64,000 bases of DNA from Ypsolopha sequella (Eukaryota; Arthropoda; Insecta; Lepidoptera; Ypsolophidae): NCBI GenBank assembly GCA_934047225.1, contig OW203998.1, positions 15,887,280 through 15,951,279 of the forward strand, read 5' to 3'. Below are positions 864-57,094 of the stretch, piece after piece (within the stretch, counting starts at the first letter, position 1; each line of letters starts with the position of its first letter). Position numbers and translations under genes: made by a program. Under the pieces are notes generated by a model. The model had not been told where the DNA came from. It worked only from the letters and a program-made list of their open reading frames with translations, and ran no database searches.

Positions 864-1547
864 TGTTTGATATAAACGCTCGTTGCTACCAGAAATTGTA
901 GCATATAAAAAGTAGTAATACTGACTAGTGACGGGCATCGACGTCACTGGTGCGAGGATTCCATAACCACGCTCAGACACCACTAATTGTATGCTAAAGG
1001 GCGATACTTGCAGCTGGAGCAGGGGCCCATAGCTGTCCCAGATTTATAGTATACAAGTATCTTATGATCTAATATTTAATATAAAATGTCCTACCAGACA
1101 GTTGTATGATGACCTCATCAAGTAGTCCTCGCACGAAGACCCTTCGCTGCGGAGACCAAGGCGTGTCGGTGCCGTGACACGTAGATCACCTTCCACGATG
1201 AATCTAAACACAACCCTCCTACCCCGGGATGCATCCGAACCCAGAAATAGTAATTAACAAGTCCACTTGTCGCACACCGCGTGGATATAGGTTATTTCAC
1301 ACACACAGGAAATACACTCAAAAGTGGCCTTCACGCCAAAATATCTTCAGCCCTTGATCGAATACTGTTTCTTACGATGTCCGCACCGATTTCCCTTGGG
1401 TTAAGCCCTTAATAACACATATTAAAATCGTCCGCGATCTATACCAAGAAAATTCCACGTCCCTCGTTTTTGACAGCTCCAAGTCCATAGACAAAATATA
1501 TAGACCATTGATGGATGCGTTCCGAAATATACATTGTATTCTGAACA
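864..1547 (-). repeat. BEL/Pao copy 1, 3' LTR
   Basis: 684 bp, TG...CA ends. It matches 5579-6262 without differences that I can see. On the minus strand it starts 'TGTTCAGAATAC' and ends 'TATATCAAACA'. It follows the polypurine tract at 1548-1561, which identifies it as the 3' LTR. Confidence 0.95.
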
Positions 1548-1561
1548 GTCCCCCGCTCTGG
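1548..1561 (-). promoter_or_regulatory. Polypurine tract of BEL/Pao copy 1
   Basis: On the minus strand CCAGAGCGGGGGAC directly abuts the first base of the 3' LTR. This is the expected place and composition for the plus-strand DNA priming site. The same tract is at 14600-14613 in copy 2. Confidence 0.75.
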
Positions 1562-1799
1562 GCTGAGCAATCAGACCACTAGCTCATACAACCGGGAGAC
1601 GGGAGAGAGTTGTCATGGCTCGTCACAAAATCGAACCTTCGACCAACACCTCTGCGACGCGTGGAGTTCCGTCTCCGCCAAAACAACTTTAATATACGGC
1701 CCCGGCGCCAAAACAAGGATAGCAAGTTCACATCCTTCAAAAGAATTAAATTTCCTTCCCTAGGATGCTCAGTCCTGTCTGACCACAGAGAGGACGAGA

Positions 1800-3102
1800 G
1801 TTGAGGACCGCTTCCACTTTACAATATACAGTGGCAAGCTCCTCAAAAATTATGACAGTTTCCCCAATAGCGCAGCGGAGGTGGGTCTTCGCCGACTTGA
1901 CGGCAGCTTCAAAAATTCCCTCCCCAGTGAGGGCAATTTGGGGGACTGTACCGCCAAGTTACCCCTTTCCGGGCGAAGATTTAACTTAAACTAGCATAGT
2001 TATTTACAAAACAAAAAATAACAATATCATTAGCAGTACCTCTGTAGATTGTGCCATTGTCGGAACGAATAAGTGAAGGTAAACCCCTACGCGACACGAA
2101 ACGATCCAACGCGGCGACGAAGGCCTCCGTAGTCAAAGCTGATACCACTGCCAAGTGAACGGCCTTGGTGGCCAAGCACACAAATACACAAGGTATGCTT
2201 TCACAACCCGAGCGTTGCGATTGCTGAAAACCCCCGTGCGCATTACGTATGTGTCAATCCGACACCAACAGATTTACCAAAGGTCCGTCTTGGGTAGAAG
2301 CAAAGGATGAAGACTTCCGTATGGCAGGTCAGCTCTCCAAAATCAGCCTCCGAAACGCAGAAGTCCTTCATAATCCGTGAAAGGATTCAAACGAGCAACC
2401 GCTCACTTCAGCCTGGCGTGATCCTCGCGCAGAACTCGAAGTCTAAACTTGATGAGGTCCGCCTGAAGTACACGTACCGTGTACCAATGCGCTCCAACGC
2501 TCCTCTGCACTCACGGCTGGGGACAAAATATATGAATTTCATTGACTGGTTGGTATTTCAACATAATACCACCATCATATTGGGATCCTCCAAATCTGCA
2601 AACAGTATATGTTCATTTGAAAGCCATTTCCTAAGTTCGAACATAATAATCCAAGTATCGAATCAAATATCGAATATCCAAAATTGTGGATACCTCCACC
2701 AATGAAGAAGAACCCAGAGTCTTTTAAAACCAAATAGGATCCATCCTAACAAATCTGCGCCCAGGAAAACATCGACTGGGGCCGGATGACAAAACGTGGG
2801 TCTGCCAGATGCAGACCTGACGTGCATGAGATTATGAACGGAGGAAGGTCCAAAGAAGGCTGCCAGCCGACAATATTGTCTATAACCATGGCTGCAGCCG
2901 CTGATTCAACTCCAGTCCACCAATACCTAGGAGCGGCACCGACGAAACCTCCAGGTTCAAAACTAATCGGTGCGCCACTTGACTTTCCAAGTCGAGGAGG
3001 GCCCTTACCCTAACTCAATCCCCCCTGGGGCCCTAGACGCGAGCCATCGCGGTAGGCAACAGAACCGTCCGCGGTTCCGTACTCATGGCTTGAACAAGCT
3101 AG
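1800..3102 (-). pseudogene. Collapsed pol of BEL/Pao copy 1 (protease and integrase remnants, no RT core)
   Basis: Downstream of gag on the minus strand, homology survives in pieces. Around 2940-3090 there is a protease-like stretch with 'VLLPTA' and an 'ALLDLESQ' site where a D-S/T-G triad is expected, with in-frame stops. Around 2745-2800 is the post-protease motif 'LADP' and, in another frame, 'LGADLLG'. Around 2580-2640 is 'ELRKWLSNEHIL', like BEL sequence between RT and RNase H. At 2000-2180 is integrase 'CLATKAVHLAVV' followed by 'SDNGT'. At 1810-1960 is the integrase C-terminal region seen as 'PPNCPHW' and 'EAVLNSRPLC' across frames. No RT catalytic Y-x-D-D motif is present. The product cannot be functional. 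Confidence 0.85.
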
Positions 3103-4956
3103 TTACAGGCTACCCCACCTGTGGAGTGCAGGACCAGTCCACTGGCAATAATACGGCTGGTGTGTGCACATCCCCACCATGGGGGGAGCGTAGCCTCCAA
3201 CTCTCCCTGAGTACGGCGGGTGGTACTCTAACCGCGGGTACTCGCGGTACGGCGGTGAGTAACCACGTGACTCCGTCTTAACACGGTGCTCTATGCCAGC
3301 TGGCACCAAAACTGGCGCGGGGAGGGGGGGCCTAGCCCTTGCCAACTCCAATTGGCCCCCGCCCGTAGGGGCCCAATTCACTACATGGCCATATGTGTGA
3401 TAGCCCGTAGGCAAGCCCCCTACGGGTCCACGCGCAAATACATAACTCACCTCCCGGTGAGGGGGCGCGCCTCGCGCCGCAGTCCTCCGTTCCGACGGAG
3501 GGGAGCTCTGCCCGACAACATGCCTTCCCTGGACCGAGGGGGGGGAAGTTCTCCCTGACGCACCCCCGTTGTCCAAGGGGGGGGGAGTTCTCCCTGAAGC
3601 ACCCCCGCCCGTAGGGCTCCGTCGCTGCGGGACCGGTGAAGCCGCTTCAGATCTGTTGGCACACAACAATAAATGGTGAGGCCCCTCACAAACACTGCAA
3701 CGTCGTGGCTCGGGACAATTACGTTCAAAATGATTGCCCAAGCAACCGAAACACAGGCCCTTACGCTTCACTATGCGTCGCCGCTCGGTGACGTGCAGGT
3801 TTCGCCACTGCTGACATCTCAGCAGGTCATGCCCCGTATGGCCACATTGTAAACAGGTCAATGACCTCTCGATCACGGCGACCCCCGCCAAACGTGTCAT
3901 ATCGCGTCCCCGCGACTGCTGCGGTTGTCTGGGCTCCCCACATTCAGATGAGCCAGCAGACGAAAATGATTGCGCCCCAGATGGCGCCAAGTCCGGCTGT
4001 GATGTTTCTGCTACCCTAGCTTCATATTCAAGAAACGTTAATAAGTCCGTAAATTTTGGCACAGTGCTGCCATCTTTTCCTGCGGACACCCGCTCAAAAC
4101 GTGACCTCACATCATTAGGCAACCTACCTAAAATAATGTGAACGAGTAAAAACGACCACTCGTCCACCGGTAAACCTAATGTTCTAAGGGCATTACACGC
4201 CACAGTGACCGGGGTCAGCAACTGCAACCTTAGTTGGGCCCGGTCAGTTACCCTAGGTAACGTCAACAATTGAGACGCATGCGCATCAGCCAGTAAGCGC
4301 ATGTTCTGATACCTATCATTTAATAAGCCCCACGCTATATCATAATGATCATCCTCTACCCTGAGGTGCTGGATGAGCAACCTTGCTTCGCCCTCCAATG
4401 TTGACATCAAATATGCCATCTTTTGCCCCTTTGATAAATCTACCCTAGAATTTATTAATGACGTAAACATATTCCTATATGAAACCCATTCTTCCATTTT
4501 CCCATTGAATTTATTTAGTTTTAAATTAGCCAAACTACTAGACACGCCATCTACCGGTTGAGGCGTGACAACTACAGGACCTCCTGAATTTTGCCTCTTT
4601 AGATCAGCAACAATATTTGACTTTATAACCAGCATCTTACCAGTGGCGCCATCTGTTGGTCTAGGTGCGCTAACAACCGGGCTGCCCGATTGTCGCTTTT
4701 TGATCATGGAGGCCGCCTCAGTTACATCATCATAAATTTCCATTATCTGAGCTAAATCCGTAACATACCTCTTCAAAGGCTCGTCACTTTCCTGCAGTGC
4801 TGCCACAGCCGCCTCTGCATCAGCCAGCCGCTGATGCATCCGCTCGGCTCTCTCCAGGATTGCATTGTCGCGATCCGAACGAGAAAGCAATCCCTGGACG
4901 GTTGTAAACCAGCGGAGCTCTTTCGCCAACGCAGCCTTGTGAGACTTGGACATCAT
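3103..4956 (-). CDS. BEL/Pao Gag polyprotein (617 aa), copy 1
   Basis: Gag forms the retrotransposon particle and packages its RNA in the cytoplasm. The uninterrupted ORF begins MMSKSHKAALAKELRW. Residues 1-85 are Ala/Leu/Glu-rich and look coiled-coil. From about residue 149, 'LNKFNGKMEEWVSYRNMF' and the following helices fit the DUF1759-type BEL/Pao gag domain. Three zinc knuckles follow: a C-X2-C-X4-H-X4-C near 365-378, a C-X2-C-X3-H-X4-C near 400-413, and a third C/H cluster near 418-431. The tail is Pro/Gly/Arg-rich with imperfect repeats (GGASGRT-PP). The last residues differ from copy 2 because of a small indel near the stop, so the true C-terminus is uncertain. Length is plausible for a BEL gag unit. 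No frameshift into pol is visible; pol downstream is broken. Confidence 0.9.
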   Translation of the reverse strand: MMSKSHKAALAKELRWFTTVQGLLSRSDRDNAILERAERMHQRLADAEAAVAALQESDEPLKRYVTDLAQIMEIYDDVTEAASMIKKRQSGSPVVSAPRPTDGATGKMLVIKSNIVADLKRQNSGGPVVVTPQPVDGVSSSLANLKLNKFNGKMEEWVSYRNMFTSLINSRVDLSKGQKMAYLMSTLEGEARLLIQHLRVEDDHYDIAWGLLNDRYQNMRLLADAHASQLLTLPRVTDRAQLRLQLLTPVTVACNALRTLGLPVDEWSFLLVHIILGRLPNDVRSRFERVSAGKDGSTVPKFTDLLTFLEYEARVAETSQPDLAPSGAQSFSSAGSSECGEPRQPQQSRGRDMTRLAGVAVIERSLTCLQCGHTGHDLLRCQQWRNLHVTERRRIVKRKGLCFGCLGNHFERNCPEPRRCSVCEGPHHLLLCANRSEAASPVPQRRSPTGGGASGRTPPPLDNGGASGRTSPPSVQGRHVVGQSSPPSERRTAARGAPPHREVSYVFARGPVGGLPTGYHTYGHVVNWAPTGGGQLELARARPPLPAPVLVPAGIEHRVKTESRGYSPPYREYPRLEYHPPYSGRVGGYAPPMVGMCTHQPYYCQWTGPALHRWGSL

Positions 4957-13909: not shown

Positions 13910-14599
13910 TGTTTGATATAAACGCTCGTTGCTACCAGAAATTGTAGCTTACAAAAAGTGGTAATACTGACTAGTGACGGGCATCAGCGTCACTAGTGCG
14001 AGGATTCCATAACCACGCTCAGACACCACTAATTGTATGCTAAAGGGCGATACTTGCAGCTGGAACAGGGGCCCATAAGCTGTCCCAGATTCATAGTATA
14101 CAAGTATCTTATGATCTATAATATTTAATATAAAACGTCCTACCAGACAGTTGTATGATGACGTCATCCACTGATCCTCGCATGAAGTCCTTTCGCTGCA
14201 CGTGGACTCCAAGACGTTCCGGTGATGTGACACGTAGATCACCTTCCACGATGAATCTAAACACAACCCTCCTAACCCGGGATGCATCCAACCCAGAAAT
14301 AGTAATTAACAAGTCCGCTTGTCGGAAGCCGCGTGGACACAGGTTATGTCACACACACACAGGAAATTCACCAAAAAGTGGCCTTCACGCCAAAATAACG
14401 TCAGCCATTGACTGAATACTGTTTCTTACGATGTCCGCACCGATTTACCGTTAATATCCCTTAATAACACATATTAAAATCGTCCGCGATCTATACCAAG
14501 AAAATTCCACGTCCCTCGTTTTTGACAGCTCCAAGTCCATAGACAAATTATATAGACCATTGATGGATGCGTTCCGAAATATACATTTTATTCTGAACA
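13910..14599 (-). repeat. BEL/Pao copy 2, 3' LTR
   Basis: 690 bp, directly followed on the inner side by the polypurine tract CCAGAGCGGGGGAC (14600-14613, minus strand). The small ORFs annotated over it in both directions are chance frames shared with the other LTR. Confidence 0.93.
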
Positions 14600-14859
14600 G
14601 TCCCCCGCTCTGGGCTGAGCAATCAGGCCACTAGCTCATACAACCGGGAGACGGGAGAGAGTTGTCATGGCTCGTCACAAAATCGAACCTTCGACCAACA
14701 CCTCTGCGACGCGTGGAGTTCCGTCTCCGCCAAAACAACTTTAATATACGGCCCCGGCGCCAAAACAAGGATAGCAAGTTCATATCCTTCAAAAGAATTA
14801 AATTTCCTTCCCTAGGATACTCAGTCTTGTCTGACCACAGAGAGGACGAGAGTTGAGGA

Positions 14860-16162
14860 CCGCTTCCACTTTACAATATACAGTGGCAAGCTCCTCAAAA
14901 ATTAGAACAGTTTCCCCAATAACGCAGCGGAGGTGGGTCTTCGCCGACTTGACGGCAGCTTCAAAAATCCCCCCCCAGTGAGGGCAATTTGGAGGACTGT
15001 ACCGCCAAGTTACCCCTTTCCGGGCGAAGATTTAACTTAAACTAGCATAGTTAATTACAAAACAAAAAATTATCAATATCTTTTAGATAGTTAGCAGTAC
15101 CTTTGTAGTTTGTGCCATTGTCGGAGCGAATAAGTGAAGGTAAATCCTTACGCGACACGAAACGATCCAACGCGGCGACGAAGGCCTCCGTAGTCAAAGC
15201 TGATACCACTGCCAAGTGAACGGCCTTGGTGGCCAAGCACACAAATACACAAGGTATGCTTTCACAACCCGAGCGTTGCGATTGCTGAAAACCCCCGTGC
15301 GCATTACGTATGTGTCAATCCGACACCAACAGATTTACCAAAGGTCCGTCTTGGGTAGAAGCAAAGGATGAAGACTTCCGTATGGCAGGTCAGCTCTCCA
15401 AAATCAGCCTCCAAATCGCAGAAGTCCTTCATAATCCGTGAAAGGATTCAAACGAGCAACCGCTCACTTCAGCCTGGCGTGATCCTCGCGCAGAACTCGA
15501 AGTCTAAACTTGATGAGGTCCGCCTGAAGTACACGAACCCAGTGTACCAATGCGCTCCAACGCTCCTCTGCACTCACGGCTGGGGACAAAATATATTAAT
15601 TTCATTGACTGGTTGGTATTTCAACATAATACCACCATCATATTGGGATCCTCCAAATCTGCAAACAGTATATGTTCATTTGAAAGCCATTTCCTAAGTC
15701 CGAACATAATAATCCAAGTATCGAATCAAATATCGAATATCCAAAATTGTGGATACCTCCACCAATGAAGAAGAACCCAGAGTCTTTTAAAAACCAAATA
15801 GGATCCATCCTAACAAATCCGCGCCCAGGAAAACATCGACTGGGGCCGGATGACAAAACGTGGGTCTGCCAGATGCAGACCTGACGTGCATGAGATTATG
15901 GACGGAGGAAGGTCCAAAGAAGGCTGCCAGCCGACAATATTGTCTATAACCATGACTGCAGCCGCTGATTCAACTCCAGTCCACCAATACCTAGGAGCGG
16001 CACCGACGAAACTTCCAGGTTCAAAACCAATCGGTGCGCCACTTGACTTTCCGTGTCGAGGAGGGCCCATACCCTAACTCAATCCCCCCTGGGGCCCTAG
16101 ACGCGAGCCATCGCGGTAGGCAACAGAACCGTCCGCGGTTCCGTACTCATGGCTTGAACAAG
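14860..16162 (-). pseudogene. Collapsed pol of BEL/Pao copy 2
   Basis: The layout repeats copy 1: integrase C-terminal region (about 14870-15020), integrase core 'CLATKAVHLAVV' with 'SDNGTNY' (15080-15242), a piece of the RT-RNase H connection (about 15640-15700), 'HLADPRF' (about 15850), and a protease-like segment whose active site reads 'ALLDTESQ' (about 16045-16065). The canonical D-S/T-G glycine is a glutamate here, as in copy 1. There is no RT core. Frames are broken by several stops. Confidence 0.85.
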
Positions 16163-18019
16163 CTAGTTACAGGCTACCCCACCTGTGAACGCAGGACCAG
16201 TCCACTGGCAATAATACGGCTGGCGCGTGCACATCCCTACCCTGGGGGGAGCGTAGCCTCCAACTCTCCCTGAGTACGGCGGGTGGTACTCTAACCGCGG
16301 GTACTCGCGGTACGGCGGTGAGTAACCCCGTGACTCCGTCTTAACACGGTGCTCCATGCCAGCTGGCACCAAAACCGGCGCGGGGAGGGGGGGCCTAGCC
16401 CTTGCCAACTCCAATTGGCCCCCGCCCGTAGGGGCCCAATTCACTACATGGCCATATGTGTGATAGCCCGTAGGCAAGCCCCCTACGGGTCCACGCGCAG
16501 ATACATAACTCACCTCCCGGTGAGGGGGCGCGCCTGGCGCCGCAGTCCTCCGTTCCGACGGAGGGGAGCTCTGCCCGACAGCATGCCTTCCCTGGACCGA
16601 GGGGTGGGAAATTCTCCCTGACGCACCCCCGTTGTCCAAGGGGGGGGGAGTTCTCCCTGAAGCACCCCCGCCCGTAGGGCTCCGTCGCTGCGGGACCGGT
16701 GAAGCCGCTTCAGATCTGTTGGCACACAACAATAAATGGTGAGGCCCCTCACAAACACTGCAACGTCGTGGCTCGGGACAATTACGTTCAAAATGATTGC
16801 CCAAGCAACCGAAACACAGGCCCTTACGCTTCACTATGCGTCGCCGCTCGGTGACGTGCAGGTTTCGCCACTGCTGACATCTCAGCAGGTCATGCCCCGT
16901 ATGGCCACACTGATAACAGGTCAATGACCTCTCGATCACGGATACCGCCGCTAAACGCGTCATATCGCGTCCCCGCGACTGCTGCAGTTGTCTGGGCTCC
17001 CCACATTCCAATGAGCCAGCAGACGAAAGTGATTGCGCCCCAGATGGCGCCAAGTCCGGTTGTGAGGTTTCTGCTACCCTAGCTTCATATTCAAGAAACC
17101 TCATTAAGTCCGTAAATTTAGGCACAGTGCTGCCATCTTTTCCTGCGGACACCCGCTCAAAACGTGACCTCACATCATTAGGCAACCTACCTAAAATAAT
17201 GTGAACGAGTAAAAACGACCACTCGTCCACCGGCAAACCTAATGTTCTAAGGGCATTACACGCCACAGTGACCGGAGTTAGTAATTGCTGCCTCAGCTGT
17301 GCCCAGTCGGTTACCCTAGGTAACGTCAACAATTGAGACGCATGCGCATCCGCCAGTAAGCGCATGTTCTGATACCTATCATTTAATAAGCCCCACGCTA
17401 TATCATAATGATCATCCTCTACCCTGAGGTGCTGGATGAGCGACCTTGCTTCGCCCTCCAATGTTGACATCAAATATGCCATCTTTTGCCCCTTTGATAA
17501 ATCTACCCTAGAATTTACTAATGAATTAAACATATTCCTATATGAAACCCATTCTTGATTTTTCCCATTGAATTTATTTAGTTTTAAATTAGCCAAACTA
17601 CTAGACACGCCATCTACCGGTTGAGGCGTGACAACTACAGGACCTCCTGAATTTTGCCTCTTTACATTAGCAATATTATTTGACTTTATAACCAGCGTCT
17701 TACCAGTGGCGCCATCTGTTGGTCTAGGTGCGCTAACAACCGGGCTGCCCGATTGTCGCTTTTTGATCATGGAGGCCGCCTCTGTTATATCATCATAAAT
17801 CCCTTTTATCTGAGCTAAATCCGTAACATACCTCTTCAAAGGCTCGTCACTTTCCTGCAGTGCTGCCACAGCCGCCTCTGCATCAGCCAGCCGCTGATGC
17901 ATCCGCTCGGCTCTCTCCAGGATTGCATTGTCGCGATCCGAACGAGAAAGCAATCCCTGGACGGTTGTAAACCAGCGGAGCTCTTTCGCCAACGCAGCCT
18001 TGTGAGACTTGGACATCAT
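16163..18019 (-). CDS. BEL/Pao Gag polyprotein (618 aa), copy 2
   Basis: This is the counterpart of the ORF at 3103-4956 and starts at the same methionine. Order: coiled-coil-like N-terminus (1-85), DUF1759-like gag core from about 149, three CCHC-type knuckles between about 365 and 431, then the Pro/Gly/Arg-rich repeat tail. All knuckle cysteines and histidines are kept; the first reads 'CYQCGHTGHDLLRC'. A few percent of residues differ from copy 1, with no stop or frameshift until the last residues, where the two copies end in different frames. Retention of gag while pol decayed in both copies suggests that gag may be used in cis during trans-mobilisation; that is inference. Confidence 0.9.
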   Translation of the reverse strand: MMSKSHKAALAKELRWFTTVQGLLSRSDRDNAILERAERMHQRLADAEAAVAALQESDEPLKRYVTDLAQIKGIYDDITEAASMIKKRQSGSPVVSAPRPTDGATGKTLVIKSNNIANVKRQNSGGPVVVTPQPVDGVSSSLANLKLNKFNGKNQEWVSYRNMFNSLVNSRVDLSKGQKMAYLMSTLEGEARSLIQHLRVEDDHYDIAWGLLNDRYQNMRLLADAHASQLLTLPRVTDWAQLRQQLLTPVTVACNALRTLGLPVDEWSFLLVHIILGRLPNDVRSRFERVSAGKDGSTVPKFTDLMRFLEYEARVAETSQPDLAPSGAQSLSSAGSLECGEPRQLQQSRGRDMTRLAAVSVIERSLTCYQCGHTGHDLLRCQQWRNLHVTERRRIVKRKGLCFGCLGNHFERNCPEPRRCSVCEGPHHLLLCANRSEAASPVPQRRSPTGGGASGRTPPPLDNGGASGRISHPSVQGRHAVGQSSPPSERRTAAPGAPPHREVSYVSARGPVGGLPTGYHTYGHVVNWAPTGGGQLELARARPPLPAPVLVPAGMEHRVKTESRGYSPPYREYPRLEYHPPYSGRVGGYAPPRVGMCTRQPYYCQWTGPAFTGGVACN

Positions 18020-34058: not shown

Positions 34059-37000
34059 GTGCTGCTGTTTATTGGAATACTTACAGTAAAATTATGCAAC
34101 ATGCAACTTTACCATGACAACATTGTACACGCATTTTCTTACTGCAGTCCACGGGAAAAAGGGGTCAAGTTGAAAAAGCATCGTCTTTTAAGCTTAAATT
34201 ATTTGTTGTTAATTTTTAATATTGTTAAATATTTTATACTTATTTATTTATTTTTATTTTTATTAATTATGTCTGATATTTTAAATAGTAGCACTGACAG
34301 TATTTATTTCTCTTTTTCTTCTTCTTCCGAAGGTCTTTTGGGTGCGGATAGTGATTCATCTGATTTGCCTGATCTCGGCAATAAGCTTCATACCACCTTT
34401 AGTCCAGTCCCGAAAAACTTCAATGTCGTCCATATAAATGCGCAAAGTATTAATGCACATTACCCGGATTTATTGGCATCATTCACTACCAGGCATATCC
34501 ATGCAATCTGTATCTCTGAATCTCATCTTCGGCCAACGCTCCCTTCGACGCTGTATCCCATCTCTGGTTATCGACTTATTAGACGGGACAGGACTCATAC
34601 TACTGGTGGTGGTGTCGCAGTATATTTACGTGCTGACCTAGACTGCAAGGTTGTCTCAGAGTCTGATCCCGGAAGTCCTACTGAACATTTATTTTTAGAA
34701 TTATCTCTTCGCCACACGAAACTTCTTTTATGTGTCTTTTATAGCCCCTCTTGTCATGTTAATTATTTTTCTTCACTTCAAACAAGTCTTGAAGCTTTTA
34801 GGTCACATTGTGAGCAAATTATCCTGATGGGAGATTTTAATACCTGTCTCATCAAAAATGACCATAGGACAAAATCACTACAGTCAATGATGAAATCTCT
34901 TAATTTGAATATTTTACCTTCTGGTCCAACTCATTTTCAGCCTGGCTCTCCCCCTTCACTCCTTGATTTGATTATTACCTCGTCTCCGGCTCATACGGTT
35001 TTCCATGGCCAATTCAATGCTGCTGGTTTTTCTCATCACGATCTCATTTTCCTGTCATATAATCTTCGTCCACCTAAATTCAAACATAAGGTTCTTCTTC
35101 TTCGTAATTTCAGTGGTATGGATCTCGAAGCGCTAAGAGCTGATGTGAGTCAGATTGATTGGTCCTCAGTAACTAAAAACGCATCAGTTAACGAAAAGGT
35201 CAAGCATTTCAACACTATCATTCTAGCACTTTATGATAAGCATGCTCCCTTAAAGCAGACTAGGGTAAAGCATCTCCCAGCACCGTGGCTCACACCGGAG
35301 ATTAAGAAACTTATGGCACAAAGGGACAGGGCTCAGGTTAGATTTAGGCTGGATCCCTCCCCTCAGAATGTCAAACGGTTCAAGCTGCTGCGTAACCACT
35401 GCAATAGTGCCTGTAGGCATGCTAGACGTCAGCATATATACGAATCCATTGAAAACTGTGCTCCTCACAATCTTTGGAAATTCCTAAAAACCCTTGGTGT
35501 TGGCAAGCCAAAGTCCGGTCCTCTCTCAAACCTTGACTTAAATGCTATTAATGGTCATTTTAGTAGTTCACCTTCCTTTTTATCTAACTTTCCCAAATCT
35601 AACACCTTGAACACCCTTCACAATTCCATTCTGTCAACCAACTATCCACCTTTTCAGTTCCATGAGATTACTTCTTTGGATGTTCGGAAGATTCTTCGCT
35701 CTATAACAACCAAGGCAGTAGGTGACGATGGGCTCAGTAAAGATATGTTCCTGCCAATCTCCGATGTAGTTTCTCCAATAATAGCAGATATTATTAACTG
35801 TTCCCTGTCCTCTGGTTCCTTTCCAAGTCCCTGGAAGAAAGCCCATATTATCCCTCTCCTTAAAAAGTCCAATCCTGCTTCTTTCTCTGATTTTCGTCCT
35901 ATATCCATTCTTCCTATTCTCTCCAAAATTCTTGAGCATATTGTTCATGAGCAATTTGCTAATTTCCTGTCCCATAACCAACTCCTCAATCCTTATCAAT
36001 CTGGTTTTCGTCCGGGACACAGCACTGTTACAGCTCTCGTTAATGTGACAGATGACTTGAGACTAAATATAGAGCAAAAGAATCTTACCGTCCTAACGCT
36101 CTTAGACTTCAGCAACGCCTTCAATACTGTTGACTTCGACATACTTGTTGGCGTGCTGAGGTCTCTCAATGTATCTCCATTGGTAATTTCATGGTTCAAT
36201 TCCTATCTCCGTGGTAGACAGCAGCTGGTTAAAATTGACACTTCCAAATCCGACTGGTGTAACCTAACAACCGGCGTCTCACAGGGTGGCGTTCTTTCTC
36301 CTCTCCTATTTTCAATTTTTATCAATTCTATTACTGCTTCCCTCTCCTCCTCTTTTCATCTATATGCTGACGACTTGCAGTTGTACGCAGCCGCACCACC
36401 ACATGACATAAACAGGGCAGTGGACACCATTAACTCTGATCTCATGGCCATTAGGGAATGGACGCTACGTTTCGGTTTACAGGTCAACCCAAAGAAGTCA
36501 CAGGCTATCATCATTGGTAGTGACTATTACGTCTCCCGCTTGGACATGTCCAACGTTTCAGATGTTGTTTTTGATGGAGAAGTAGTGCCTTACTGTACGA
36601 CTGTGAGGAATTTGGGTTTGTGGATAGACCAAACTCTGTCTTGGTCTCCACATGTCAATGAAGTAAGTCGTAAAGTTTTCGGCTCATATCACTCTCTTAA
36701 GCGCTTACAGAAGTTTCTGCCACAGGAAACGAAAATAACGTTAGCTCAATCTCTTCTTCTTCCCCTACTAGATTATGCCGATGTTGCTTATCTAGATCCC
36801 ACTGAAGAGCTGCTTGATAGGCTGGAGCGTCTTCAGAACTTGTGTATCCGATTCATATACGGACTGCGCAAGTATGATCACGTCTCCGACTTTCGATGCA
36901 GGTTGAAGTGGCTCCCTATTCGTCTTCGCAGGAACTTACATATCCTTTCCCTTTTATACAATGTTCTTCACAATCCCGTCTACCCCCATTATTTAAAAGA

Positions 37001-37217
37001 AAGAGTTGTCCTTCGCACTGACCGTAGCAACAGAACGCTTCGCTCCTGTCACCTTTCCGATCTGGCGATGCCTGCCCACACCACTGATCGTTTCACCAAA
37101 TCCTTCACGGTCAATGCTGTTCGACTCTGGAATGAACTTCCGCAAAACCTCAAAGATCTTCCTTCTGTGTCCTCTTTTAGATACAACTTGAAAAAATTTT
37201 ACATCTCATCTCTCTGA
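34059..37217 (+). CDS. LINE endonuclease/reverse transcriptase, uninterrupted ORF (LINE-A)
   Basis: The protein nicks target DNA and reverse-transcribes its own RNA there. The frame is open for 1052 codons; the likely start is the Met at 34269 (MSDILNSST), because the first 70 residues are hydrophobic and AT-rich. An AP-type endonuclease domain spans about residues 115-335, with 'HINAQSI', 'ISESHLRP', 'GDFNTCL' and 'GFSHHDLI'. The RT spans about 590-860: 'DFRPISILPILSKILE', 'GFRPGHST', catalytic 'LDFSNAF', 'GVSQGGVLSPLLF' and 'YADDLQLY'. The C-terminus ends with 'LKWLPIRLRRNLHILSL' and 'VRLWNELP'. This architecture fits the CR1/Jockey-type group; I cannot fix the clade. No stop or frameshift is present and no ORF1 is visible. 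Broken relatives are at 6331-7060 and 57820-58265. Confidence 0.92.
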   Translation: MLLFIGILTVKLCNMQLYHDNIVHAFSYCSPREKGVKLKKHRLLSLNYLLLIFNIVKYFILIYLFLFLLIMSDILNSSTDSIYFSFSSSSEGLLGADSDSSDLPDLGNKLHTTFSPVPKNFNVVHINAQSINAHYPDLLASFTTRHIHAICISESHLRPTLPSTLYPISGYRLIRRDRTHTTGGGVAVYLRADLDCKVVSESDPGSPTEHLFLELSLRHTKLLLCVFYSPSCHVNYFSSLQTSLEAFRSHCEQIILMGDFNTCLIKNDHRTKSLQSMMKSLNLNILPSGPTHFQPGSPPSLLDLIITSSPAHTVFHGQFNAAGFSHHDLIFLSYNLRPPKFKHKVLLLRNFSGMDLEALRADVSQIDWSSVTKNASVNEKVKHFNTIILALYDKHAPLKQTRVKHLPAPWLTPEIKKLMAQRDRAQVRFRLDPSPQNVKRFKLLRNHCNSACRHARRQHIYESIENCAPHNLWKFLKTLGVGKPKSGPLSNLDLNAINGHFSSSPSFLSNFPKSNTLNTLHNSILSTNYPPFQFHEITSLDVRKILRSITTKAVGDDGLSKDMFLPISDVVSPIIADIINCSLSSGSFPSPWKKAHIIPLLKKSNPASFSDFRPISILPILSKILEHIVHEQFANFLSHNQLLNPYQSGFRPGHSTVTALVNVTDDLRLNIEQKNLTVLTLLDFSNAFNTVDFDILVGVLRSLNVSPLVISWFNSYLRGRQQLVKIDTSKSDWCNLTTGVSQGGVLSPLLFSIFINSITASLSSSFHLYADDLQLYAAAPPHDINRAVDTINSDLMAIREWTLRFGLQVNPKKSQAIIIGSDYYVSRLDMSNVSDVVFDGEVVPYCTTVRNLGLWIDQTLSWSPHVNEVSRKVFGSYHSLKRLQKFLPQETKITLAQSLLLPLLDYADVAYLDPTEELLDRLERLQNLCIRFIYGLRKYDHVSDFRCRLKWLPIRLRRNLHILSLLYNVLHNPVYPHYLKERVVLRTDRSNRTLRSCHLSDLAMPAHTTDRFTKSFTVNAVRLWNELPQNLKDLPSVSSFRYNLKKFYISSL

Positions 37218-38640: not shown

Positions 38641-39765
38641 ATATGAATGAATGAATGAATGAATATGTTTATTTATTTCAAAGATAACTTAATCTAAATA
38701 CATCCCACAAAACCAAGTAGAAATTTGGTTTGTCTGTGGGGAGGGAGTCGCACTTCTTTTTCTATAAATTAGATAGTTATGTACTAAATTATAAGTAGTT
38801 AGGTACATTAATAGTAAATAATAAAATGCTATTTTAATCTGTCAATGTTTTCATGTTTTGTAAAAGGTAAGTTTTATATAACTTCGCGAATTTATTGTTT
38901 TTTTATTCAGATCTTATATGAATAGGCATTTCATTATATAACATTGGAATTTTGCGCTTTAACATTCTGCCGCCAAAATAATTATTCACTTTTACAGTTT
39001 CATATTTCCCTTGCGCAGCAGCTCTCGTGTTGAGCCCATGCTGTTTAGGTATCTTATGATCTGGGGTGCTATGGCTATTTACTGCTATTATATATTTATA
39101 TTTTAATGAAGCCGGTAGAATTTTACAGATTGAGTACAATATTTTGGTATTATTTTTGTGTTTTTTTCTAACATTTTTACTGACTAGGAATTTTAAGAAT
39201 TTTATTTGTATATTTTCAATCTTATCCATGTATGTTTTGAATATAGATCCATAGCAGTCCAGACCATAAGATATAATTGAATCAACCAAAGACATATATA
39301 TAGTTTTTAGCACGGAGATTGGTACTTTGTAACTGAGATGTTTGAATTTAAATAACAATATGCGTAGCTTATTTAATATTTTTTCTATATGTTTAGTCCA
39401 GCCCATATTTTCATCGATACACATTCCTAGGTATGTAACACATGGAACTTGCTTTATTGTTTTACATTTACAATTAGATAACTTATTATGGAAACAGTTA
39501 TAGTCGTGTGCAACAAGGTTGCATGAAGAGTCCGGGGTGCAAGAGTACGGAGACCGTATGACAAGGAGGTTAGTTTTTTCGGCATTGAGTACGATTCCAT
39601 TATCGTGCGACCATCGCACTACGTTGTCGATATCCTCCTGCACGAGACGCGAGACCTCGTCCATGTCGCGGCCGGCCCGCAAGGTGCACAGGTCGTCCGC
39701 GAACATGTACGCTGAGCAATGGCGGACCACGTTGCACAGGCTGTTCACGTGCATCAGGTAATGAA
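38641..39765 (-). pseudogene. LINE-B, 5'-truncated RT C-terminal part with 3' UTR
   Basis: On the minus strand a 283-codon frame (38903-39754) starts inside the RT domain: 'SAYMFADDLCTLRAG' contains the catalytic FADD motif, followed by 'VLNAEKTNLLVI', 'VTYLGMCIDENMGWTKHIEK' and the thumb region 'SLVDSIISYGLDCYGSIF'. It ends RSE-stop. The 3' UTR then runs to an ATTC-type tail at 38641-38665. Everything upstream of the FADD motif is missing, so it is dead although the remaining frame is open. At its 5' end it abuts the foldback element starting at 39766. A second copy is the target of BEL copy 1. Confidence 0.9.
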
Positions 39766-44101: not shown

Positions 44102-44260
44102 TACCAATTGGTTCAAACTGTTTAAAAACCGACTCAGCGCACCCCGACTTCTGTATGTGTAGGTTAAAACTGTTAAAAATTGACTCAGCGCCCCCTGATA
44201 CCTATACTGGTAGGTTCAAACTGTTCAAAAACTGACTTAGTGCACTTCGACTCTTCACAG
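44102..44260 (+). repeat. Three diverged tandem units of about 52-56 bp
   Basis: Units begin near 44105, 44160 and 44210 and share 'ggttcaaactgttcaaaaac' and 'gactcagcgc' variants. A fourth, weaker 'taggttgaattgg' echo is at 44528. Flanks differ. Confidence 0.6.
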
Positions 44261-44279
44261 TCTTGTGGCTACTACCCCT

Positions 44280-44445
44280 AGAGTGTATATAAAAAGCCGG
44301 AGGCACGCAGGGAGGGCAACCCTCGTCTGCCGTAACAAAGTGCAGGCAACCCTGCGAACCGGAGCGGCTGAGGCTGGTCGCCGAAGGCGACCAACAAGCT
44401 GAAGCTGCGGAGGTGAGCATGGGTGTCTGCACTTTGTTACGCAAG
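44280..44445 (+). promoter_or_regulatory. TATA-like box followed by a GC-rich double hairpin
   Basis: 'tatataaaaag' at 44286-44296 precedes a GC-rich block. 'cgtaacaaagtgcag' (44331-44345) and its reverse complement 'ctgcactttgttacg' (44427-44441) form an outer stem, and 'tggtcgccgaaggcgacca' an inner one. A donor-like 'GAG|GTGAGC' lies at about 44411. It could be a promoter with a structured 5' exon, or an RNA gene. The minus-strand ORF across it looks like a by-product of GC richness. Confidence 0.4.
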
Positions 44446-45005
44446 GGCGAAGGGGTTGCACTTCCCGCAGTGCCGGAGCCGATGCAGAAGTGAAATTTTT
44501 GTCAAAAAATTTACTTCTATACGGATAGGTTGAATTGGTCCTAAAATCGGCTTCTGCATTGGTAGGTTCAGATGGGGAATGGGCCCTCCTCCCCCCCTCC
44601 AACCACCCCCAGCCAGTTTAATTTTACAAAATAATGTAAATATAACCTCAAAATTTTATAAAATAAATAATTAATTTCTCAAAAATTATACATTTCCGCA
44701 CAAAATAAAATATACTAGGGGAATAGGGGAGCCCCCCCTACCCCCCCCCCCCCCCTCACTCCCACCCCCCAATTAAGGACGCACGATTCAAAAATTTTAC
44801 CTACGTCTTACCCTAGGTCTTACATGATGCGTCGGCAGCTTCGAAGGTGCGGACACGTCTCGTGGTACAAAGATGAACGAGGCCCTGAATGGTGCGGGCT
44901 TGTATATACAGAGGCAAGTACGCGGTTTTAAGAAACACCGCAAAACTGGCCTCGACGCCAAACACGACGAGTTAAAAGCCCGACCACCCGCGGCTATTCA
45001 CTGTG
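44446..45005. other. Flank of the DIRS element with long C-tract
   Basis: C-rich runs lie at 44596-44612 and 44732-44772. The ORF at 44873-45091 runs into the DIRS terminal repeat and is not credible past 45005. Nothing else is recognised. Confidence 0.4.
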
Positions 45006-55419: not shown

Positions 55420-55479
55420 CCTCTACCACAGTATAAGCAAAGACAGTAGGGAAACTACCTGTAAGCGCTCCGATTCGAG

Positions 55480-55641
55480 CCTCAGACATCAGACGCGTGC
55501 TCTACACGCCGTCTAAGCAGACATGGGGGGTCAATCGCTGGGGCCGCGGTGGCGCCGCGCCGCGCTTGCCTTGCCAGTACGCGCAGACGTAAGCGGGTGA
55601 TAGGACGTGGCGTTTGTAAAGTCTGTGCCGACCTGAACACG
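55480..55641 (+). promoter_or_regulatory. GC-rich putative promoter/5' UTR of the THAP exon
   Basis: This CpG-rich block ('gccgcggtggcgccgcg') contrasts with its AT-rich surroundings and directly precedes the ATG at 55642. No TATA box is evident. The small ORF upstream on the same strand (from 55549) reads into the exon in frame, so an earlier start cannot be excluded. Confidence 0.4.
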
Positions 55642-55733
55642 ATGTCGCAAAGATATTGTTGCGCATTTGGATGCCTAAATTCGTCACGAAAAAAGGAAAT
55701 CGCCTATTTTAAACTTCCGGCTGATGTCCAAAG
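55642..55733 (+). CDS. THAP zinc-finger N-terminal exon
   Basis: The exon encodes MSQRYCCAFGCLNSSRKK followed by EIAYFKLPADVQ and ends AAAG|GTAAGA in phase 2. A near-N-terminal C-x(2-4)-C pair, then basic residues and 'F.LP.D...R', is the opening of the THAP (C2CH) DNA-binding domain, with 'KLP' where 'RFP' is typical. The remaining Trp and C-x2-H of the domain must lie on a later exon that I did not find within the element. Its place inside perfect terminal inverted repeats suggests a transposase remnant; a host THAP gene is the alternative. Confidence 0.6.
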
Positions 55734-56294
55734 GTAAGACTAAAAAATATCACTCAAGAGTAGTACCTACTTACATTACAAATTAAATTTTTGAAATTGT
55801 CGCGTTCTTTTTATGTATGTTCATACTGTCTGTTACCAGGGCAAAATAAATAGTTAATAGATTTAAGTACGCTTGTCAGAACAAAAAGCAGGTTTCTTTG
55901 AGTTTGAATTTGACTTTTTTGTCGGTTGTCGCCGCCGTCGCCGCCGCCGCGCTGCCGCAAGCAAGTCTAGCCAACCAATCGGTGGAGCGGCGCGCGGTAC
56001 TTTCAATCAAACGGCAGATACGACGAATATGCGGAATATGTCTCAGAGTAAATATATTTATGGTATACAACTCCGCTATTATAGAATTTGCTGGAATGGG
56101 TCAGAGTAAATGTGGAGGAAGTTACCGTGGGCAATCATTACGTAAACAATCATCTATCTTTAGCTATAGTAGAAAAAAAGTCATGTCTATCTGTACATTA
56201 AATATTTTTTATGAAATTTAAAATTTAACGAGTTATTTATTAGTAAATATTTTTGTACTGAGGCCAAAACTAAAATTTTTGTCTCTCTGTCTAT

Positions 56295-56475
56295 CTTTCT
56301 GTCTTAAATTCAAATTCAAATTAAAAAAATAGTTTATTTTGCAAAGTAGGTATATACAAGATGACTTTTTGATCATCGTCCAAATTCATGCTGGAGGCTT
56401 GATAAGTGATCAGTATCTTGGATTAGTAACAATTTTTGTGAAATTTCATTTTACGAATTTCACCAAAATTGTTAT
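56295..56475 (-). repeat. LINE-E tail and hairpin fragment inside the transposon
   Basis: 'aaattcaaattcaaattaaa' followed by 'gtttattttgcaaagtaggt' is the minus-strand 3' end shared with LINE-E copies at 59370 and 62550. Next to it 'ccaaattcatgctggaggct' and a small foldback ('ttttgtgaaatt'/'aatttcaccaaaa') match the element at 59095-59355. Confidence 0.65.
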
Positions 56476-57094
56476 TGATGCATGAACTGTTTCTAAGAAT
56501 GCGAATATATTACACAATTAAATTTAACAACCAAGCTTTTAAAACAAGCCGAAACAGGCGAAAATATTTTTCTGTGTCTAATTTATAATTTTATAAATAA
56601 CATTCCTGATGCAAAAGTAATTTGTCTTTTTTATTATTCTATTAGCAGGGTGATTGGTAATTCAACCAGTTCCTTCGTGGTTATTTTGAAGTGAATACTT
56701 CCATGGTCGCGTCTCGTATAGGGGGGGCTGTTCAGAACGTGTTCTAGACATTTTCATATTTAGTGTTTGAGAATACTTTGACGGGGTAGTTCTTTTGGGG
56801 TAGTTTTTTAAATTTGGGAAAGCTTATTGACTTGATCTGCTCATTAGGGAAGGATAATTTAATTTCTTAATACAGATTATTACTACGTTTTTTAATCGTT
56901 CATTATTTATTATTTAAGATAAGTTAATGCTTATTTTTAATATTGATATGACGATGACGAGTCTTATCGTATCTCGAAAAACCCAAATAATGATATGAGT
57001 GAGCGACAGCCCTAACGCTTCGGTGGCGCGTAGGTATTTAACTCAGGAATTCGGTTCAATTTCCCTACTGTCTTTGCTTATACTGTGCCTCTAC

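What the first reader, a model, noticed from the sequence alone, without database searches (positions are those of the whole stretch)
55420..57094. THAP-like exon enclosed by 28-bp perfect terminal inverted repeats and a 7-bp duplication: candidate P-element-like transposon
Seen: CACAGTATAAGC... repeats in inverted orientation 1.66 kb apart, cctctac directly outside both, and an exon opening like a THAP domain with a good splice donor. Known: P-superfamily transposases start with a THAP domain, have terminal repeats starting CA, and duplicate about 8 bp. Inference: an internally deleted P-like element, a superfamily described mainly in Diptera and a few other animals.
Basis: partly seen in the sequence, partly recalled or inferred. 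Interest (0 to 1): 0.75.

Follow-up and report, generated by a model that had tools for sequence, protein, structure and literature searches.

The report
Deleted P-element transposon in a moth
This is a cut-down copy of a jumping gene related to the fruit-fly P element, sitting in a moth or butterfly genome that also holds full-length copies with an apparently intact enzyme gene, and this cut-down form seems to have jumped recently.

Summary
The same genome (Lepidoptera by its mitochondrial ND2) holds full-length elements with the same ends. In the 4907-bp copy L059 the exon joins a second one, giving an 826-aa transposase with THAP, helix-turn-helix, split RNase H and GTP-binding domains and the catalytic residues of Drosophila P transposase. 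The window copy is this element without positions 1065-4304. Three other full-length matches to it lie at other sites with other duplications; one differs at 1 base in 1661. So the deleted form was mobilised, recently. Correction: the duplication is 7 bp, not 8, in 26 of 26 copies examined, whereas 8 insertions of four other P-superfamily lineages in this genome fit 8 bp, less surely for one lineage. Seven-bp duplications are known in the superfamily (Galileo, 1360). It is a new lepidopteran family of a known superfamily, ordinary in kind.

The parts
55420..55426 (.). left target site duplication CCTCTAC (7 bp)
55427..55454 (+). 5' terminal inverted repeat, 28 bp, perfect
55427..56485 (+). 5' arm = positions 1-1064 of the full-length element L059 (98.4% identical)
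55642..55733 (+). exon 1 (predicted), 30 codons plus 2 nt of the 31st: N-terminal part of the THAP domain; splice donor GT at 55734
56485..56486 (.). deletion junction: positions 1065-4304 of the full-length element missing (second THAP part, helix-turn-helix, RNase H, GTP-binding domain); 1-nt overlap at the join
56485..57087 (+). 3' arm = positions 4305-4907 of the full-length element (99.3% identical); 56485-56588 correspond to the last codons and stop of the transposase
57060..57087 (-). 3' terminal inverted repeat, 28 bp, perfect
57088..57094 (.). right target site duplication CCTCTAC (7 bp)
1525..1828 (+). paralogous empty target site (not part of the element): matches the joined flanks of L026, the copy that shares the window's deletion, straight across its insertion point
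14577..14880 (+). second paralogous empty target site of L026
44222..44469 (-). paralogous empty target site of the related deleted copy L014

Best explanation
A non-autonomous, internally deleted member of a P-superfamily cut-and-paste DNA transposon family in a lepidopteran genome. Full-length relatives (4907 bp in L059, 5777 bp in L070) carry a two-exon transposase gene. SHOWN from sequence: shared 28-bp ends, open transposase frames at other loci, conserved catalytic residues, the same deletion form at four sites, 7-bp duplications, empty paralogous sites for three related copies. INFERRED: the transposase binds the ends, uses GTP as cofactor, excises the element and inserts it with a 7-bp stagger at a weakly palindromic target; the window copy makes no transposase (the intron 1 acceptor and nearly all of exon 2 are gone) and moved only with transposase from full-length copies. 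The internal deletion most likely arose when gap repair after excision broke off, as is thought for Drosophila P (recalled; gap repair is mentioned in passages of PMC4168063).
For: TIRs and TSD. Whole element in L059 with the same TIRs and a 7-bp TSD. 826-aa product: THAP 4.2e-14, RNaseH_N 1e-26, GBD 5.2e-20, RNaseH_C 1.2e-8, Tnp_P_element 5e-5, all over Pfam cut-offs. Drosophila P transposase 6p5a E 1.2e-34, with D230/D303/E531 matched by D260/D349/E578, and D339, D444, D528 also kept (roles from passages of PMC8230255, and PMC7776569). A second locus, L070, 828 aa with 11 differences of 828. Matches over the full 1661 bp at C2, C18 and C20 with other TSDs; window versus L026: 1 difference in 1661. 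26 of 26 copies with a 7-bp TSD. Empty sites for 3 of 23 joined sites tested.
Against: No transcript, protein or mobility data. The Pfam P-element C-terminal model scores below its cut-off (14.5 against 22.6 bits). D252 of the fly enzyme is not kept (K). No subterminal inverted repeat like that of Drosophila P was found: first 320 and last 520 bases of L059's element share no inverted exact 9-mer besides the TIR (a diverged one could be missed). The search with the window's left flank found only itself, so its own empty site could not be shown. The two C10 full-length copies are 9.1 kb apart and equal in the coding match, so they may be one duplicated segment.
Confidence: 0.97

Rival explanations
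1. The exon belongs to a host THAP gene in which a MITE or an unrelated inverted-repeat pair happens to lie.
For: Exon 1 alone is a weak THAP match (E 0.022) and THAP genes occur in animals (recalled).
Against: The 5' arm with this exon recurs beside the same TIR on many contigs; in L059 and L070 the exon joins in frame to a transposase exon within the same TIRs.
Confidence: 0.01
2. It belongs to another superfamily with similar ends, such as hAT (8-bp TSD, CA ends), Transib (5-bp TSD, CACWRTG ends) or a THAP-bearing Kolobok (TTAA); these defining features are recalled, except the TSD lengths of hobo (8) and Transib (5), which stand in the table passage.
For: The TIR begins CACAGT, which resembles Transib/RAG signal ends; THAP domains are not exclusive to P (recalled).
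Against: TSD is 7 bp in 26 of 26 copies, not 5, 8 or TTAA; the transposase matches the P-type RNase H, GTP-binding and HTH models and P transposase of D. melanogaster.
Confidence: 0.01
3. The four 1661-bp copies arose by segmental duplication, not transposition of the deleted form.
For: They are nearly identical.
Against: Each of the four has its own 7-bp duplication (CCTCTAC, GCCCCGG, CTCTGAA, GTCGCAC) and different adjoining bases; a search with the window's left flank found only itself.
Confidence: 0.01

Closest known systems
P element of Drosophila melanogaster and its internally deleted forms (KP recalled; Har-P, passages of PMC6917496)
   Same: THAP + HTH + split RNase H with GTP-binding insertion; catalytic D, D, E; about 30-bp TIR (CA start recalled for the fly element); short internally deleted copies moved by transposase from full-length ones
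   Different: TSD 7 bp instead of 8; full length 4.9-5.8 kb against 2.9 kb; two predicted exons with a 1.7-kb first intron; 118 of 388 aligned residues identical; no subterminal inverted repeats found
1360 (Hoppel) and Galileo of Drosophila
   Same: P superfamily with 7-bp TSDs: 1360 in 274 of 279 insertions (table passage in PMC3276498), Galileo mostly 7 bp (passages of PMC4168063 and PMC2775673); palindromic target motif
   Different: Galileo has long internally repetitive TIRs and the preferred target GTANTAC; here the TIR is 28 bp and the target only weakly constrained. Their transposases were not compared here
P elements and P-MITEs of Anopheles gambiae (passages of PMC1562414)
   Same: 27-31 bp TIRs; full-length and MITE forms sharing ends
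   Different: 8-bp TSDs; coding sequences with three putative exons as a rule
Lepidopteran database proteins (Colias eurytheme P0001 58%, Brenthis ino P0003 59%, Choristoneura fumiferana P0004 51%, Helicoverpa armigera P0005 49%)
   Same: THAP, RNaseH_N and GTP-binding domains, aligned over 92-100% of the query
   Different: only protein records were seen; their elements, TIRs and TSDs were not examined

Membership tests
P superfamily of DNA transposons | transposase with N-terminal THAP domain | tested here: met
   PF05485 E 4.2e-14 on the spliced L059 product; in the window copy only the first part remains
P superfamily of DNA transposons | split RNase H domain with GTP-binding insertion domain and P-type HTH | tested here: met
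   PF21787, PF21788, PF21789 and PF12017 over cut-offs
P superfamily of DNA transposons | catalytic residues equivalent to D230, D303, E531 | tested here: met
   D260, D349, E578 in the 6p5a alignment
P superfamily of DNA transposons | terminal inverted repeats beginning CA (recalled criterion) | tested here: met
   CACAGTATAAGC..., 28 bp perfect; but two other P-type lineages in this genome begin CTCGG, so the criterion is not general
P superfamily of DNA transposons | TSD of 7 or 8 bp | tested here: met
   7 bp in 26 of 26 copies
canonical P element (8-bp TSD group) | 8-bp TSD | tested here: not met
   0 of 26 copies show an 8-bp repeat at the symmetrical boundary; shifting one end by one base gives 7 and 5 of 26, near the 6.5 expected by chance
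canonical P element (8-bp TSD group) | 11-bp subterminal inverted repeats | tested here: not met
   no shared inverted exact 9-mer besides the TIR in first 320 / last 520 bp of L059's element
Galileo / 1360 group | 7-bp TSD | tested here: met
   literature passages
Galileo / 1360 group | transposase clusters with Galileo or 1360 | not tested
   no Galileo or 1360 transposase was retrieved
non-autonomous internally deleted derivative | ends of an autonomous element, interior missing, copies at several sites | tested here: met
   positions 1-1064 + 4305-4907 of L059's element; four copies at different sites (the interiors of the C18 and C20 copies are known only from the match). Mobilisation in trans is inferred

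The most novel reading that the evidence does not exclude
A currently active P-superfamily family with a 7-bp stagger lives in one lepidopteran genome beside other recently active P-superfamily lineages with an 8-bp stagger, and feeds a set of short deleted passengers. The genome could then reveal what in the transposase sets 7 against 8 bp, and crosses could show P-like hybrid dysgenesis outside Diptera.
Probability: 0.35. Interest if true: 0.6.

Novelty: new member of a known kind. Interest (0 to 1): 0.36.

Why it matters
It gives an apparently intact and recent P-superfamily element in Lepidoptera, with exact ends and a supply of short deleted copies like those that P transposase moves in flies. 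The 7-bp and 8-bp lineages in one genome form a natural comparison for how a transposase sets the spacing of its two cuts. It does not change the picture of the superfamily.

Tried and rejected
Host THAP gene and other superfamilies were considered and rejected (see rivals). For lineage L065/L066 I first read the flanks by eye as a 7-bp duplication, which lets the boundaries move by up to 12 bases, gives 8 bp with a better TIR, so that reading was dropped. With that freedom an 8-bp repeat arises by chance at about 1% per insertion (625 boundary pairs times 4^-8, my arithmetic). For L075 the top-ranked option was a 6-bp repeat (9 of 20 TIR bases), the 8-bp one second (8 of 20), so that lineage is the least sure; for L066 a 10-bp option with a poorer TIR was also listed. 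Subterminal inverted repeats were sought and not found.

The window's own empty site was not found: the search with its left flank returned only itself (the tool warns that this does not prove rarity), and with its right flank, where 40 of 1737 candidates were scored, no match but its own begins before query base 23. Of 23 joined sites compared with the loci then held and the window, 3 (L026, L014, L018) gave substantial alignments across the insertion point; L011, L012, L027 and L028 gave matches on one side only; L025 gave one-sided matches and a short match across the point to its own neighbourhood (L001), which I did not count.

The ends of lineage L072/L073 (99.96% identical) could not be set: the shared stretch reaches the edge of L073 and no flanking duplication was found, so its TSD is unknown. 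The C28 copy L069 (807-aa frame, 86% protein identity) shows no intact 12-bp end in the fetched stretch. The 20 copies taken by place were pairs of ends picked from the first 100 listed of 431; pairs shorter than about 1.4 kb were left out.

Paper searches: searches found 0 papers; some searches gave listings, from which I saw passages of PMC4168063, PMC2775673, PMC3573991, PMC1562414, PMC7776569, PMC8230255, PMC6562904, PMC4016481, PMC7764229, PMC6917496 and PMC3276498; no paper was read whole. P elements in Helicoverpa armigera are named in abstract and passages of PMC7764229; the Heliconius survey PMC4016481 had no hit for 'P element' or 'P superfamily'. I found no description of this family, within those searches only.

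Full report
OBSERVATION. The two arms at 55427-55454 and 57060-57087 are 28 bp long and perfectly complementary. CCTCTAC lies directly outside both. About 3e-8 such pairs are expected in 64 kb, and a given 7-bp flanking repeat has a chance of about 6e-5 (uniform bases). The 12-bp start of the repeat occurs 212 + 219 times in the 867-Mb genome, against 36 + 23 for the pattern read backwards. The excess of 372 ends points very roughly to 186 copies.

HOST. A mitochondrial contig of the same assembly carries ND2. The species is not identified.

FULL-LENGTH COPIES. A DNA search with the window element listed 140 matches with 40 of 3546 candidates scored, so a lower bound; four run over the whole 1661 bp. 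Some 5' arms lie near matches of the P-transposase RNase H model. The copy at C10 (L059) spans 4907 bp, with the same 28-bp ends and a 7-bp duplication. Exon 1 (positions 216-307) and exon 2 (2020-4408) are separated by a 1712-bp intron with a GTAAGA donor and a CCTTTCCAG acceptor; the join gives 826 aa without a stop (the splice is predicted, not seen in RNA). Pfam finds THAP, Tnp_P_element HTH, RNaseH_N, GTP-binding insertion and RNaseH_C domains over their cut-offs; the P C-terminal model stays below its cut-off. Among solved structures the one transposase matched is Drosophila P transposase, E 1.2e-34; the other four matches are THAP domains. 118 of 388 aligned residues are identical; D230, D303 and E531 are matched by D260, D349 and E578, D339, D444 and D528 are kept, D252 is not. 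The roles of these residues come from passages of PMC8230255 and PMC7776569.

TRANSPOSASE CENSUS. A protein search (55 of 1198 candidates scored) lists four nearly complete exon-2 matches without stops: two at C10, equal in score and 9.1 kb apart, one at C26 (98%) and one at C28 (87%); two at C8 and C22 carry stops, and C17 has a part (99%, residues 409-826). The C26 copy (L070) also has the exon 1 start, donor and acceptor and gives 828 aa with 11 differences of 828. So two clearly separate loci keep an apparently complete gene.

THE WINDOW COPY. It equals positions 1-1064 plus 4305-4907 of L059's element (98.4% and 99.3%), with a 1-base overlap at the join. It keeps the 5' leader, exon 1 and the splice donor. 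It has lost the acceptor and all of exon 2 but the last codons, so it should make no transposase. Read past the donor, exon 1 stops at once (31 aa). Matches over the same 1661 bp lie at C2:16255184 (L026), C18:25222888 and C20:7532945, with TSDs GCCCCGG, CTCTGAA and GTCGCAC; L026 was read whole, of the other two only the ends. The C20 copy is 1669 bp at 99%. Window and L026 differ at 1 of 1661 bases. One deletion at four sites with four different duplications means that the deleted form itself was mobilised, and recently. Other deletion classes recur too: 1-1773 + 4414-4907 in L015-L019, and 1-1482 + 4627-4907 in L021-L023 and L025.

TARGET SITES. I examined 26 copies: the window; 20 taken by place because their ends were paired (from the first 100 listed of 431 ends, pairs under about 1.4 kb left out); L059, L060, L070; and the C18 and C20 copies. 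All 26 have a 7-bp duplication, none 8 at the symmetrical boundary. Moving one end by a base gives 8 bp in 7 or 5 of 26, near the chance value of 6.5. In 25 of these sites (L070 was fetched later) position -2 is a pyrimidine in 25 of 25 and +2 a purine in 23 of 25; A at -6 (17) and T at +6 (18) are common. Matches to a palindrome over 7 positions number 69 of 175, against a mean of 44 and a maximum of 57 at control centres. Three of 23 joined sites align across the insertion point to paralogous sequence without the element: L026 to window 1525-1828 and 14577-14880, L014 to window 44222-44469, L018 to L003 (L018 with one mismatch in the 7 bp).

OTHER P LINEAGES IN THE SAME GENOME. The RNase H model gives 150 matches, 150 of 320 candidates being scored. 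I fetched pairs of copies from five other lineages, 25-28% identical to this transposase. For four of them the ends could be set, and 8 of 8 insertions fit an 8-bp duplication. This is clear for L067/L068 and L076/L077 (20 and 18 of 20 TIR bases match), good for L065/L066 (13 of 20), and weak for L074/L075 (8 of 20; for L075 a 6-bp reading ranked higher). The fifth, L072/L073, could not be bounded. L065/L066 and L067/L068 are 100% identical between copies, so these lineages too are recent.

KNOWN. D. melanogaster, Anopheles and zebrafish P elements are described with 8-bp duplications (passages of PMC7776569 and PMC1562414). 1360 makes 7 bp in 274 of 279 insertions (table passage of PMC3276498), and Galileo mostly 7 bp (passages of PMC4168063 and PMC2775673). 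Palindromic target motifs are described for such elements (PMC3276498). Short internally deleted copies moved by transposase from full-length ones are known from Har-P (passages of PMC6917496). P elements are reported in Helicoverpa armigera (abstract and passages of PMC7764229), and the best named relatives of this transposase are lepidopteran protein records (for the first two). The finding is therefore a new family of a known superfamily, represented here by a non-autonomous deletion derivative.

VERDICT. The most interesting point left open is the 7-bp against 8-bp difference among lineages of one genome, which I could document but not explain.

Noticed in passing
window 3103-4956 (-) and 16163-18019 (-): Two near-identical ORFs of 617 and 618 aa with the Pfam DUF1759 domain and CCHC-like motifs by eye, as in gag of Pao/BEL retroelements (recalled); described only.
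   Followed up: partly
window 34059-37217 (+): Open 1052-aa frame with endonuclease and reverse transcriptase domains: a non-LTR retrotransposon.
   Followed up: partly
window 38903-39754 (-): 283-aa reverse-transcriptase-like fragment, below the Pfam cut-off.
   Followed up: partly
L059, positions 1104-1287 and 1413-1600 of the element: Tandem direct duplications of about 82 and 88 bp inside intron 1; in more diverged copies (L012-L014, L020) parts of the window element's 920-1063 region occur in both orientations.
   Followed up: no
L060 and L070, at element position 1941-1943: Both carry about 850 extra bases at the same place in intron 1 that L059 lacks: a shared insertion or a loss in L059.
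   Followed up: no
L067/L068 and L076/L077: Two other P-superfamily lineages with termini beginning CTCGGAC rather than CA and 8-bp duplications; L067 and L068 are 100% identical over 4293 bp.
   Followed up: partly
G000 small contigs such as C51, C54, C55, C60, C73, C120, C121, C130: Many near-identical P-RNase H matches (open frames of 354, 311 and 401 aa) lie on small contigs as well as on C2 and C10, perhaps a repeat-rich region that resisted assembly; not examined.
   Followed up: no
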